Assembly: GCF_900111025.1 (NCBI RefSeq)
Contig: NZ_FOFN01000002.1
Coordinates: 124,001 to 188,000, forward strand
Direction of reading: 5' to 3'
DNA length: 64,000 bases
Source of the DNA: Hyunsoonleella jejuensis
Lineage (GTDB): Bacteria; Bacteroidota; Bacteroidia; Flavobacteriales; Flavobacteriaceae
In this document: positions 23,317 to 54,228 of the stretch, in pieces
Layout: each line of letters opens with the position of its first letter
Position numbering within the stretch: position 1 is the stretch's first letter
The notes under the pieces: model-generated
What the model was told of the DNA's origin: nothing
Seen by the model: the letters and a program-made list of their open reading frames with translations, nothing else
The model's database searches: none
Made by a program: the position numbers and the translations under genes

Positions 23317-24030
23317 TCAGTTAGAGAAGTCATGTACTGATTCTCTTTTCCCGAATCTTAGGGCAAAAAACCTATAAATCGTTGGAATAGGGTCTTTAAT
23401 GAAAAATTTTAAACTGGAATGTGTTTTTAAAAATTGCCACCTAAATAAAACGTTCTTTTCTTGTTTTACTTTTAATTTTAAACCTTTTAGACTATAATAA
23501 GTACATGCATTAAATTTTTGCCTTGTCAAAGTTTGCCCTATACTCAACTTATGAGATAATTCTGGAAAATTGATACCCGCGTGTAACGAAGCCTCAAGCG
23601 ACAACCAAAACCTAGGATTAATCTCAATAACTTTGAATTGTTGTACATTCACGTCAAATCTCAAATCAATATGTGCAATACCTGACCAATTAAGCGTTTT
23701 CATGAGCTTTTCTACCACGGAGAACAACTTGGGTTCTTCAATAAAAACATGAGCATAAGAAGGTGAAAAATCAGAAGCTTCATTAACAATACCTTTTTGA
23801 ATGGTGTATGCTAAAATTTCACCTGCTTTACACAATACGCTGCAATCAATATCGTACCCTTCTATATATTCTTGAATAACGTGTGTTCCTAAAAAAATGT
23901 TATTTTTAAAATGGGTTTTAAGAGTATCCTTATTTTTAAAAATATGGATATGCTCACCCCCAGCAAACCCTATTGTAGGCTTACTTATTACAGGAAAATT
24001 TAATGTTTCCATTTTGTTTAATTCCTCCAT
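23317..24030 (-). pseudogene. ATP-grasp enzyme, C-terminal part (after frameshift)
   Basis: 237 codons from the first ATG, holding the ATP-grasp core: FPVISKPTIGFAGG (ATP-binding Lys and Gly loop), THVIQEYIEGYDIDCSVL, and IEINPRFWLS with the metal-binding E-x-N. These belong after the N-terminal part encoded at 24036-24458 in the neighbouring frame. Bases just before the ATG translate in this frame as VTN, which joins smoothly to PKG of the upstream piece. One missing base near 24043 explains the split. ATP-grasp enzymes join a carboxylate to an amine or thiol; substrate unknown. It could in principle be translated alone from the ATG at 24030 (GGAGG overlaps the start), but lacks the N-terminal domain. 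Confidence 0.7.
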
Positions 24031-24035
24031 ATTGG

Positions 24036-24458
24036 TTACAAGTACCCTTTAGGATGTGGAATGTCATACGTATGTAAATGCTGAGACAGTAGTCCTTTAT
24101 CATTAGCTGTATCAAAATTGTGAAGCTCAGGTAATAGCATTAACTTTTTTGCTGCTTTTAATTTGCTCTTGTATAGTATTAGTTTTCGAATGCTACCCGC
24201 AGAAACTGGCAAAATGAAATCAATACCGTGATTTTTCACTGTGTCGTCAATCGTATTAATATAATCTTCATCACTTTCAGTTTTTGGAGCATAAGAAAAG
24301 TGATTCACTAACCTCGAAAAACGCATTGGCGTGTATTTTAGATTCGAAAGCAGATATATTTTATACTGATTTGAAGTTGCCAAACAATTGATAACAGGTA
24401 TTGCTAAATGGGAATGACCATCAGGAATCAATACCGATATACAGTCCTTTTTTTTCAA
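24036..24458 (-). pseudogene. ATP-grasp enzyme, N-terminal part (before frameshift)
   Basis: 140 codons from a TTG start followed by an A8 run, beginning MKKKDCISVLIPDGHSHLAI. It is the pre-ATP-grasp domain: a Rossmann-like fold with SAGSIRKLILY and KGLLSQHLHTYDIPHPKGYL, the usual lead into the ATP-grasp core, where a stop codon is met in the wrong frame. The rest of the enzyme follows at once in the -1 frame. The start lies two bases after the stop of the small membrane protein gene, so all three pieces form one operon. Either a real inactivating mutation or a sequencing error. Confidence 0.7.
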
Positions 24459-51649: not shown

Positions 51650-52324
51650 TCACTCCTTAATTATTACAACAGTAACCTTAACGCCTGTAGCTAGTGCCCA
51701 TACCTTATTAGAAATTCTGTTGTCATTCTCGTCCACAATACGATATTCTGCGGTATTTGGTCCAGAAGCCCCAGTATTAAGAGCTTGAAATACAATTTCG
51801 TTAAAGCCCTCTTTTAAATCAAGTTTAAATCCGCTAAACCCTTGCGTTAAATAAGCTCTTGGTTGTATTATATCGCCATTTACATAAACACGTAATAAAT
51901 CACCATCGATGGCAGAGTAATCTCTATACATTATCCGTATAGATTTTGCAGTAGTTCTATAATCACCCCAATAGGCATCTTCTTTTAAACCAGAATTTTC
52001 GCCATGACCTTCGGGAAGTAATGTTTTTTCAATTTTATCAAGTTTCTTGGTATATAATTCTCCAGGATTACCAAATTCCTCTTGAGGAAACATGGAGAAT
52101 TCCCTTTTAGGTAATTCTAATTTCCCAACTACTTTTGGAGACTTAACACCACTAAATTGATCATTCTGTTTAGGTTTTTCAGGAGAAATCTTTTTACTAT
52201 CCGTGGAATCTTTTGGCGCTTCAATAGCAGGTATAATCGCACCAGATTTCTTTTTAGAATCTATTTGTGCGTTACCGATAGCCGTAAAAGCAAAGACTAA
52301 AAAACAAGTAATTATAATTCTCAT
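51650..52324 (-). CDS. Secreted protein of unknown function
   Basis: 224 residues. Signal peptide (to about Ala 19, AIGNAQ), a low-complexity Lys/Ser/Pro linker (about 20-65), then a compact beta domain with DYRTTAKSIRIMYRDYSAIDGD, LRVYVNGDIIQPR, LDLKEGFNEIVFQALNTG and NTAEYRIVDEN. The domain looks like a carbohydrate-binding or cell-surface sandwich fold but I do not recognise the family. A TATCTTTG -7 box lies about 43 bases upstream. Confidence 0.75.
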   Translation of the reverse strand: MRIIITCFLVFAFTAIGNAQIDSKKKSGAIIPAIEAPKDSTDSKKISPEKPKQNDQFSGVKSPKVVGKLELPKREFSMFPQEEFGNPGELYTKKLDKIEKTLLPEGHGENSGLKEDAYWGDYRTTAKSIRIMYRDYSAIDGDLLRVYVNGDIIQPRAYLTQGFSGFKLDLKEGFNEIVFQALNTGASGPNTAEYRIVDENDNRISNKVWALATGVKVTVVIIKE

Positions 52325-52374: not shown

Positions 52375-52586
52375 TTTTTTTATCTTAAAACCTGGTATAC
52401 ATGCCTCTTATTTTATAACTATTTAACAATAACTATACCTAAATAGTCTCAACACCCCTTCTCTCCTTTCTAAAAACACTAAAATCTGTTAAAAACTGTT
52501 AATTTATTACTTTGTTATACATAGTACTGTAACAAAAATGATTTATGCTCGTCTATTCTATATACATCAATTAAAAAACAACAATT

Positions 52587-52673
52587 ATGAGAACTTTAAA
52601 CAGTAACCAAATCACGGAAACATTAAACAGTAGTAAGTCTAACGTATGGAATAGCAAAAGACGTTATAGATAA
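52587..52673 (+). CDS. Tandem miniprotein A (28 aa), novel
   Basis: 28 codons from ATG to TAA. The peptide starts MRTLN, has ITETLN and one Trp, and ends in the basic run SKRRYR; net charge about +5, no Cys and no signal peptide. It aligns without gaps to the next ORF at 22 of 28 residues. Seven of those 22 use different codons, including AGT versus TCG for one Ser, and five of the six changed residues are conservative. That pattern shows selection on the protein, not just repeated DNA. It is preceded by a CATCAATTAAAAAACA leader shared with its neighbours. Function unknown; too short for ordinary gene finders. Confidence 0.65.
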   Translation: MRTLNSNQITETLNSSKSNVWNSKRRYR

Positions 52674-52722
52674 TCGTAACTTTTATTCCATTATTTAATT
52701 CATCAATCAAAAAAACATCATT

Positions 52723-52809
52723 ATGAGAACTTTAAACACAAATCAAGTAACAGAATCATTAAACGGATCGAAAACCAATACTTGGAACAGCAAGAGACGT
52801 TATAGATAA
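52723..52809 (+). CDS. Tandem miniprotein B (28 aa), novel
   Basis: The second copy, 49 bases after the first. Same length, same MRTLN start and identical WNSKRRYR end. The upstream leader is the same length up to the ATG and differs at only six positions (CATCAATCAAAAAAACA). The copies have diverged enough that silent sites differ, so the duplication is old and both have been kept. Possible roles include a cationic peptide acting on membrane or nucleic acid, a secreted signal or toxin, or a regulatory leader. None is shown by the sequence. Confidence 0.65.
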   Translation: MRTLNTNQVTESLNGSKTNTWNSKRRYR

Positions 52810-52891
52810 TATAACGTCTTAAACTTCCTTAACAAAAAACTTCGGTAGTAATATGGAGGAATCCTTATAAAACTAAACATCATCAATCAAA

Positions 52892-53023
52892 ATGCGAACA
52901 GTTATCAAAATATCAAAACACCTTAAGGGTATTACGGAAGAAAATTTATTTTCCAATAAGCGCATCTTAAGTTTCCCAAGTAATCAAACATCTTGGGCTC
53001 GACTACATCATCAGATGCGCTAG
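52892..53023 (+). CDS. Tandem small protein C (43 aa), possible relative
   Basis: 43 codons, starting MRT like its neighbours and preceded by CATCATCAATCAAA, the same leader motif moved closer to the ATG. It keeps an ITE, one Trp and a basic end (HHQMR) but is otherwise different and longer (KISKHLKG, FSNKRILSF). Net positive charge. It probably belongs to the same set by leader and position; homology of the peptide itself is weak. It ends 67 bases before the exbD-like gene. Confidence 0.5.
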   Translation: MRTVIKISKHLKGITEENLFSNKRILSFPSNQTSWARLHHQMR

Positions 53024-53090: not shown

Positions 53091-53648
53091 ATGAGACGAA
53101 CAAAAGAACGCCCAGAAGTAAATGCGGGGCCTATGGCAGACATCGCATTTTTATTATTAATCTTTTTCCTAGTAACAGCAGTAATTCCCAAAGACCAGGG
53201 GATTTATCGTAAACTTCCAAAAGAGTGTCTTCCAGAAGAAGATTGCAATATCCTTATCCCAGATAGAAACATATTAAAAATCGTCATCAACGCAAAAAAT
53301 GAAGTTATGGTAGACGATGCTATTGTTTCAGTTTCTGAAGTAAAAGACCTTGCAAAAGCCTTTATTGATACTAATGGAGACGGTAGTTGCACCTATTGTA
53401 ATGGCGGTAAAATTGAAACAGCTTCAGATAATCCTTCAAAAGCTGTAATTTCATTAAGATCAGACCGAAATACCAATTAGAATCAATTTATTGAAGTTCA
53501 AGACGAACTTACAAAAGCGTATTTTGAATTGCGAAAAACCTACTGCGAGTCTGTTTTAAAAAAACCAATCGACAAGTTAACCGAAGATGAGTTACAGCAA
53601 CTAAAAAACGCTTATCCGTTTATTCTTTCTGAAGCAGAAACCAGGTAA
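53091..53648 (+). pseudogene. exbD: ExbD/TolR-type biopolymer transport gene interrupted by a TAG codon
   Basis: A full ExbD-like frame of 185 sense codons apart from one in-frame TAG at 53478-53480. Before it: RRTKERPEVNAGPMADIAFLLLIFFLV with the membrane helix and the proton-path Asp 17, then a periplasmic domain with GDGSCTYCNGG and AVISLRSDRNTN. After it the same frame continues NQFIEVQDELTKAY and ends NAYPFILSEAETR, just as intact flavobacterial ExbD proteins do. The TAG falls where homologues have Tyr, a one-base change. The 129-residue product would lose its last 56 residues. No ExbB/TonB gene is nearby. Either a recent pseudogene or a truncated variant. Confidence 0.75.
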
Positions 53649-53814: not shown

Positions 53815-54228
53815 TTAGTCTATTGGAATACCGTAATCGATACAAACACGCTGCCTGCCCCAAATTTTAGCAGCTTTTACATCAATGCCCATATAAACAT
53901 CAATACGGTTTCGCCAACGTGAATGCATTTTATCTTTCACTAAATAAATACCCTCTAATCCCTCAATGATTACGGGTGTATTATGTTTTAAACCCAGTGC
54001 CAACAAATCTCTAGACACCGCAATATATTTAAGTCCTGGTTGTAAAGTATCCCCAAAAGCAGTGATATTAGGGTCGCCATCCGTTTGATACGCTAACGAA
54101 TTATATGCCGTAGCAGTAACCATTCGCGAGTGCCAATTATAAGAATCGGGTATATCCTCTGCAGAATTTTTACAACTAAATACAGCTGCAAGACATAAAA
54201 TGCATAAGTATTTTAGAATTGTTCTCAT
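53815..54228 (-). CDS. 3D-domain lipoprotein
   Basis: 137 residues, lipobox AVFSC (Cys 19). The 3D domain, named after three Asp, is seen as VTATAYNSL, TAFGDTL, AVSRDLLALGL and VKDKMHSRWRNRIDVYMG; it is a double-psi beta barrel found in MltA-type lytic enzymes and in Rpf-like proteins. It probably acts on peptidoglycan. Start ATG at 54228. The 170-base gap on the other side carries the GC-rich repeat. Confidence 0.85.
   Translation of the reverse strand: MRTILKYLCILCLAAVFSCKNSAEDIPDSYNWHSRMVTATAYNSLAYQTDGDPNITAFGDTLQPGLKYIAVSRDLLALGLKHNTPVIIEGLEGIYLVKDKMHSRWRNRIDVYMGIDVKAAKIWGRQRVCIDYGIPID

What the first reader, a model, noticed from the sequence alone, without database searches (positions are those of the whole stretch)
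53478..53480. Single in-frame TAG splits an otherwise intact ExbD-like gene
The frame before and after the TAG together gives a complete ExbD-type protein with a normal C-terminal ending; the stop stands where I expect Tyr. All other features, including the membrane Asp, are intact. This means either a very recent nonsense mutation, a sequencing error, or a deliberate short form of 129 residues. With the miniproteins before it, the locus may be in the process of change.
Basis: partly seen in the sequence, partly recalled or inferred. Interest (0 to 1): 0.55.

Follow-up and report, generated by a model that had tools for sequence, protein, structure and literature searches.

The report
Recently broken spare ExbD-like gene
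A stop codon cuts short a spare energy-transduction gene in a marine flavobacterium; relatives keep it whole or have lost it in other ways, so it is most likely an ordinary fresh pseudogene, though the tiny conserved proteins in front of it appear undescribed.

Summary
Confirmed: TAG at 53478-53480 interrupts an ExbD-like frame (53091-53648, 185 residues read through) at codon 130. All 15 intact orthologues aligned have Tyr there, including those of 10 of 11 other same-genus genomes, so the short form is not ancestral. No tRNA reading UAG was among the 35 found, and TAG is an ordinary stop in this window. The sequence after the TAG is undamaged: no clear own-lineage amino-acid change in 55 residues. 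So the stop is very recent, or an assembly error, which I cannot exclude without reads.

The gene is an orphan ExbD. The genome's two ExbB genes each sit with other, intact ExbDs. At the same locus in four other genera it is broken by different lesions (one frame change, two frame changes, a three-integrase insertion, near-complete deletion), while flanking genes are rarely broken. A recent nonsense mutation in a repeatedly discarded accessory gene is favoured.

The "miniproteins" are not debris. They are two tandem 28-aa genes and a 43-aa gene under purifying selection, behind a conserved promoter block. The 28-aa family occurs in 55 of 149 Flavobacteriaceae genomes searched and has no Pfam or NCBIfam match. 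That family is the more interesting object; its function is unknown.

The parts
53478..53480 (+). premature TAG at codon 130 of the ExbD-like frame
   Evidence: Tyr codon in all 15 intact orthologues aligned
53091..53480 (+). ExbD-like 5' part (129 aa): transmembrane helix with the membrane Asp (D17) and most of the periplasmic part
53481..53648 (+). ExbD-like 3' part in the same frame, no longer reached by ribosomes unless the TAG is read through (55 codons + TAA)
   Evidence: no clear own-derived amino-acid change
52587..52673 (+). miniprotein gene 1, 28 aa (MRTLN...WNSKRRYR family)
   Evidence: pN/pS 0.24 in 8 genus genomes
52723..52809 (+). miniprotein gene 2, 28 aa, tandem copy
   Evidence: pN/pS 0.19
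52892..53023 (+). miniprotein gene 3, 43 aa, sister type
   Evidence: pN/pS 0.30
52488..52555 (+). conserved promoter block: GTTAAA...TGTTAA repeat (52488-52502), palindrome TACTTTGTTATACATAGTA (52508-52526), TGTAACA-N15-CGTCTA (52528-52555, resembles an ECF-sigma -35/-10; label recalled)
51650..52324 (-). divergent 224-aa protein with a signal-like N terminus (cluster 0), syntenic neighbour; no Pfam match
53815..54228 (-). 137-aa 3D-domain-like protein (cluster 6), syntenic neighbour downstream
   Evidence: PF06725 at 19.9 bits, under its cut-off of 23.8

Best explanation
Recent loss of function by a nonsense mutation in an accessory, orphan ExbD-like gene. Shown: the stop is derived, its codon is Tyr in every intact orthologue aligned, the genome holds three other intact ExbD/TolR-type genes and two ExbB genes elsewhere, and the same gene is broken or without trace at the same locus in several other genera. 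Inferred: the ribosome stops after codon 129, the product keeps the membrane helix but lacks the end of the ExbD domain and the 55 residues after the stop, and so it no longer works. The cell tolerates this because the gene is dispensable, as it is in many lineages. The miniprotein genes upstream remain intact and probably keep their function without it.
For: Orthologue over residues 1-185 (or nearly) without a stop in 10 of 11 other same-genus genomes. In 149 family genomes, own included, 41 have a full-length orthologue by my score cut (212 bits): 39 without a stop, own with TAG, G020 with a TGA near the natural C terminus. The TAG codon is TAC or TAT in the 15 orthologues aligned with it. 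Of 44 loci searched for the gene, 25 hold an orthologue trace and 5 of these are broken: own TAG; L098 one frame change; L089 two frame changes; L082 split by a 3.5-kb insert with three integrases; L088 only the last 28 residues left. Control: of 167 pairs of locus and neighbouring gene away from locus ends, 1 is broken and 1 more is matched only in part; Fisher p 0.0009 for 4 of 24 against 1 of 167, own locus left out. Seven more loci keep cluster 0 and the miniproteins but show no ExbD trace. Both ExbB genes sit next to other, intact ExbD genes. No anticodon CTA among the 35 tRNAs found.
Against: No second lesion and no raised dN/dS: pairs with the own copy have pN/pS 0.14-0.24, like other pairs. 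After the TAG the own copy has 0 clear derived amino-acid changes, against 4 in its nearest relative. That fits a very recent mutation, an assembly error, or continued read-through equally well. A second gene of this window also looks broken, which could mean a weaker assembly. L089 is from a genome listed as 75% complete, so its frame changes may be assembly errors. The loci compared are related and were chosen by me (33 of the 55 miniprotein genomes), so the p value is only a guide.
Confidence: 0.77

Rival explanations
1. Sequencing or assembly error: the strain really has a sense codon and an intact gene.
For: The rest of the frame is pristine on both sides, and the part after the TAG shows no clear own-lineage amino-acid change. 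Another gene in the window (ATP-grasp, 23317-24458) also looks split.
Against: The assembly is in 11 contigs and 99.99% complete. The hit falls in a gene that is often broken at this locus in other genomes, which is expected of real mutations, not of random errors.
Confidence: 0.15
2. Deliberate short form: a functional 129-residue ExbD-like protein.
For: The 129-aa frame keeps the membrane helix with its Asp and most of the periplasmic region.
Against: 15 of 15 intact orthologues aligned continue, and residues beyond the stop are invariant in them (Y130, I134, V136, Q137, E139, A143, Y144, R148, Y175, P176). In E. coli the TonB D-box binds strand beta5 of ExbD (PMC12215075, passages); that beta5 lies in the part cut off is recalled.
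Confidence: 0.05
3. UAG is read through (suppressor tRNA or recoding), so the full protein is made.
For: The codons after the TAG look constrained.
Against: None of the 35 tRNAs found has anticodon CTA (the list is incomplete, no tRNA-Ile and no Ala-TGC was found). TAG ends 13 of 52 window frames of 180 aa or more (mechanical count), so it is an ordinary stop.
Confidence: 0.03

Closest known systems
ExbD/TolR family (PF02472), Bacteroidota Ton-system ExbD
   Same: Single N-terminal membrane helix with the motif NAG-x-MADIAFLLLIFF and its Asp, ExbD domain over cut-off, Tyr at the TAG column also in solved ExbD 7ajq (weak match).
   Different: Orphan: no ExbB beside it. 48% identical over residues 5-150 to the genome's own Ton-type ExbD. 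Cut at codon 130.
Nonsense-mutation pseudogene of a dispensable paralogue
   Same: Derived stop, intact orthologues, other intact paralogues, recurrent loss at the same place.
   Different: No further decay visible yet.
exbD2 of Flavobacterium psychrophilum (PMC9331221, passages; the original paper, Alvarez et al. 2008, not seen)
   Same: A second exbD copy in a flavobacterium; a mutant with it inactivated is viable.
   Different: [quoted passage not shown] the gene here is not beside an ExbB gene.

Membership tests
ExbD/TolR (PF02472) | profile match over the curated cut-off | tested here: met
   68.6 bits against 25.4, read-through protein
ExbD/TolR (PF02472) | N-terminal membrane helix with conserved Asp | tested here: met
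   D17 invariant in 15 orthologues and present in the own copy; the helix is read from the sequence, not from a usable model
ExbD/TolR (PF02472) | complete periplasmic domain in the product | tested here: not met
   Pfam match spans 5-144, the product ends at 129
ExbD/TolR (PF02472) | gene next to an ExbB/TolQ partner | tested here: not met
   only two PF01618 genes found in the genome, both elsewhere
Nonsense pseudogene | stop absent from orthologues | tested here: met
   10 of 11 other same-genus genomes hold the orthologue, none with a stop
Nonsense pseudogene | relaxed selection or further lesions | tested here: not met
   pN/pS not raised, 0 clear derived changes after the stop; 3 changes at columns invariant in the other 15, range in those 0-4
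Nonsense pseudogene | stop confirmed by reads | not testable with these tools
   no reads and no second assembly of the strain at hand
UAG recoding or suppression | tRNA with anticodon CUA | tested here: not met
   0 of 35 tRNAs found; list incomplete

The most novel reading that the evidence does not exclude
The tandem 28-aa miniproteins, their 43-aa sister and the ExbD-like gene form an undescribed, family-specific envelope module of Flavobacteriaceae under one conserved promoter block. Its small proteins are the core, and its ExbD-like energy-transduction part is optional and repeatedly thrown away.
Probability: 0.25. Interest if true: 0.55.

Novelty: new member of a known kind. Interest (0 to 1): 0.3.

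Why it matters
The stop itself is a routine gene loss, but it is one of several separate losses of the same accessory ExbD at one conserved locus, which gives a natural series for asking what an orphan ExbD is for. The miniprotein family found beside it is conserved, selected, widespread in Flavobacteriaceae and without a match in Pfam or NCBIfam, so it is an open target for functional work.

Tried and rejected
Deliberate short form: rejected, none of 15 intact orthologues aligned ends there. Amber suppression: no CTA anticodon among the 35 tRNAs found. Miniproteins as fragments of the ExbD gene: rejected; they are separate conserved reading frames with pN/pS 0.19-0.30. RNA element instead of coding: Rfam gave two matches, both below gathering score and of eukaryotic families. 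RiPP precursors: considered because of tandem copies and a conserved C terminus; by eye I recognised no maturase among the 25 commonest neighbour clusters printed, but I made no profile scan for one. S14P in the own copy as a second lesion: weak, because the aligned residue in solved ExbD is also Pro. AlphaFold model of five intact relatives: mean pLDDT 44.5, too poor to use; no fold search was made. My first control count used a laxer test for the neighbours than for the ExbD gene; one search repeated it with the same test (coverage, stops, pieces) and added one partly matched neighbour (cluster 0 in L103), which may be divergence; the p value was not recomputed. Literature: searches for ExbD + Flavobacter + premature stop codon, small proteins + Flavobacteriaceae + ECF + tandem, ExbD periplasmic domain, exbD2 + Flavobacterium, Bacteroidetes + small proteins + ECF + PadR, Flavobacteriaceae + small open reading frames + 28 amino acids and KRRYR listed nothing that I recognised as this locus or these miniproteins; I saw listings only, and searched passages of four papers: PMC7014051 (no hits), PMC12215075, PMC9331221, PMC8400371.

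Full report
Observation. The frame from ATG 53091 reaches TAG at 53478-53480 after 129 codons and continues in frame to TAA at 53646-53648, 185 residues in all with the stop as X. The read-through protein is an ExbD/TolR-type protein (PF02472, 68.6 bits, cut-off 25.4, residues 5-144), so the stop lies inside the ExbD domain.

Is the stop ancestral? No. One search covered 60 genomes (own and 59 relatives). Of the 11 others of the same genus, 10 hold a full-length orthologue (62-84% identity to the read-through protein), none with a stop; the eleventh, G010, shows only weaker ExbD matches and is 87% complete. An alignment of 15 intact orthologues (the 10 of the genus and 5 of other genera) has Tyr in every row at this column. 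At codon level the own copy has TAG where these 15 have TAC or TAT. Named relatives are Jejuia pallidilutea and two Hyunsoonleella species at 83-84%, so the window is probably from that group of Flavobacteriaceae. In 149 family genomes, own included, 41 have a full-length orthologue by my cut of 212 bits: 39 without a stop, the own copy with TAG, and G020 with a TGA close to the natural C terminus. That last frame ends a few residues early, which I do not count as broken. Split copies score lower and are not in this count.

What is the gene? It is an orphan ExbD. The genome has four PF02472 genes over cut-off: C7:9010, C2:696159, C2:696820 and this one. It has two ExbB genes, C2:695284 and C7:8577, each beside the other ExbDs and not beside this one. 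Its best match in the own genome apart from itself is the C2 ExbD at 48% over residues 5-150. A profile of the orthologues matches solved ExbD 7ajq weakly (whole-sequence E 0.04, neither stretch significant alone), and in that alignment the Tyr at the TAG column falls on a Tyr. A passage of PMC12215075 says that the TonB D-box binds strand beta5 of ExbD; that beta5 lies beyond this point is recalled. A structure model of intact relatives was too poor to use (mean pLDDT 44.5).

How old is it, and is it decaying? Pairs with the own copy have pN/pS 0.14-0.24, within the range of the other pairs of the genus (0.10-0.27). Among residues differing from the nearest relative (L008), 8 before the stop are derived in the own copy, 9 in the relative, 6 unclear. 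After the stop 0 are clearly derived in the own copy, 4 in the relative, 1 unclear, of 55. Synonymous differences after the stop are large (pS 0.63). By a rough estimate of mine, an unconstrained tail would have gained tens of changes over the whole branch, so the stop is probably no older than about a tenth of it. The own copy has 3 changes at columns invariant in the other 15 (S14P, N95T and the stop); the others have 0 to 4. There is therefore no sign of older decay. This is what a very recent mutation, an assembly error, or continued read-through would each give.

Read-through is unlikely. All 35 tRNA genes found have ordinary anticodons, none CTA. The list is incomplete: the search scored 150 of 327 candidates, and no tRNA-Ile and no Ala-TGC appeared. 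TAG ends 13 of 52 window frames of at least 180 aa (TAA 33, TGA 6; mechanical count).

Recurrent loss at the same place. I fetched 40 stretches centred on the 28-aa miniprotein family, from 33 of the 55 genomes, mostly those with the best scores; G035 was among them, and I already knew that its copy is split. Four stretches (L039-L042) were added. In these 44 loci much of the neighbourhood recurs: a divergent 224-aa protein (cluster 0, 30 loci), the miniproteins, the ExbD-like gene, a 3D-domain-like gene (19 loci) and a dehydrogenase E1 (25 loci). A translated search for the ExbD-like gene gave 25 loci with an orthologue trace (49% identity or more), 1 with only a weak 26% match (L100), and 18 with none, 7 of which still have cluster 0. 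In four of the 25 (L092, L103, L108, L117) the gene lies further from the miniproteins. Five of the 25 are broken: the own copy by TAG; L098 by one frame change (pieces 6-72 and 74-185); L089 by two frame changes; L082 split at about residues 73-77 by a 3.5-kb insert with three tyrosine-recombinase-type integrases in a row (such trios are known as RIT elements, recalled); L088 with only residues 158-185 left. As a control, the same search with eight neighbouring genes gave 167 locus-gene pairs away from locus ends. Five were flagged by stops: on inspection three are ordinary C-terminal ends, one lies before the start, and one (cluster 0 in L089) is a real break. A stricter repeat added one partial match (cluster 0 in L103), which may be divergence. 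So 1, at most 2, of 167. With the own locus left out, 4 of 24 against 1 of 167 gives Fisher p 0.0009. The loci are related, so the p value is only a guide; and L089 comes from a genome listed as 75% complete. This pattern makes a real nonsense mutation more likely than a random assembly error, because a random error would not prefer the one gene of the neighbourhood that other lineages also lose.

The miniproteins. They are 28 aa (52587-52673), 28 aa (52723-52809) and 43 aa (52892-53023). Seven of the ten same-genus genomes with the orthologue have the same set just upstream (L007-L013); in the other three (L014, L015, L017) my filtered listing of the upstream stretch shows none. The 28-aa family has invariant M1 R2 T3 L4 N7 W21 N22 R25 R26 R28 over 22 sequences, and pN/pS is 0.24, 0.19 and 0.30 for the three genes over 8 genomes, so they look translated and selected. 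The family occurs in 55 of 149 Flavobacteriaceae genomes, often in tandem, and in 3 of 198 genomes drawn over the phylum, all three of the same family. Pfam and NCBIfam give no match, and the string KRRYR was in no paper of the library. Co-occurrence with the ExbD-like orthologue is strong but not strict: both in 31, miniprotein only 24, ExbD only 10, neither 84 of 149 (Fisher p 3e-9, not corrected for relatedness). Of 43 arrays, 32 have AGTACTGTAAC within 140 bases upstream and 36 have TGTAACA-N13-18-CGTC (sequences compared by eye, with a GTTAAA/TGTTAA repeat and a palindrome TACTTTG-x-x-AT-x-CA-x-AGTA in front in many). The palindrome occurs once in the own genome, here, and 0 times in the reversed control; TGTAACA-N14-17-CGTCTA occurs four times against one in the control. 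The likeness of the latter to ECF-sigma promoters and of the palindrome to PadR-type operators is recalled, not tested.

Conclusion. The best reading is a very recent nonsense mutation in a dispensable orphan ExbD (0.77), with assembly error as the main rival (0.15). It is ordinary as a stop codon. The miniprotein family beside it is the part worth following.

Noticed in passing
52587-53023: Family of 28-aa miniproteins (tandem) in 55 of 149 Flavobacteriaceae genomes and a 43-aa sister, under purifying selection, no Pfam or NCBIfam match.
   Followed up: partly
52488-52555: Conserved promoter block in front of the miniprotein arrays (TGTAACA-N13-18-CGTC in 36 of 43 arrays); its palindrome occurs once in the genome.
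   Followed up: partly
23317-24458 (minus strand): ATP-grasp-type gene also looks broken: two frames of 140 and 237 aa in different phases, while homologues (38-49% identity) in five same-genus genomes lie in open frames of 369-388 aa.
   Followed up: partly
L082:6381-10466 (G159): ExbD-like orthologue split by a 3.5-kb insert with three consecutive integrase-type recombinases.
   Followed up: partly
G000:C2:1202721-1202748 (L176): Same TGTAACA-N-CGTCTA pattern in front of an 83-aa frame ending in a hydrophobic stretch.
   Followed up: no
L113-L116 (G016): One genome has nine matches to the miniprotein family; those of L113, L114 and L115 have neither the ExbD-like gene nor cluster 0 in the stretch read.
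   Followed up: no
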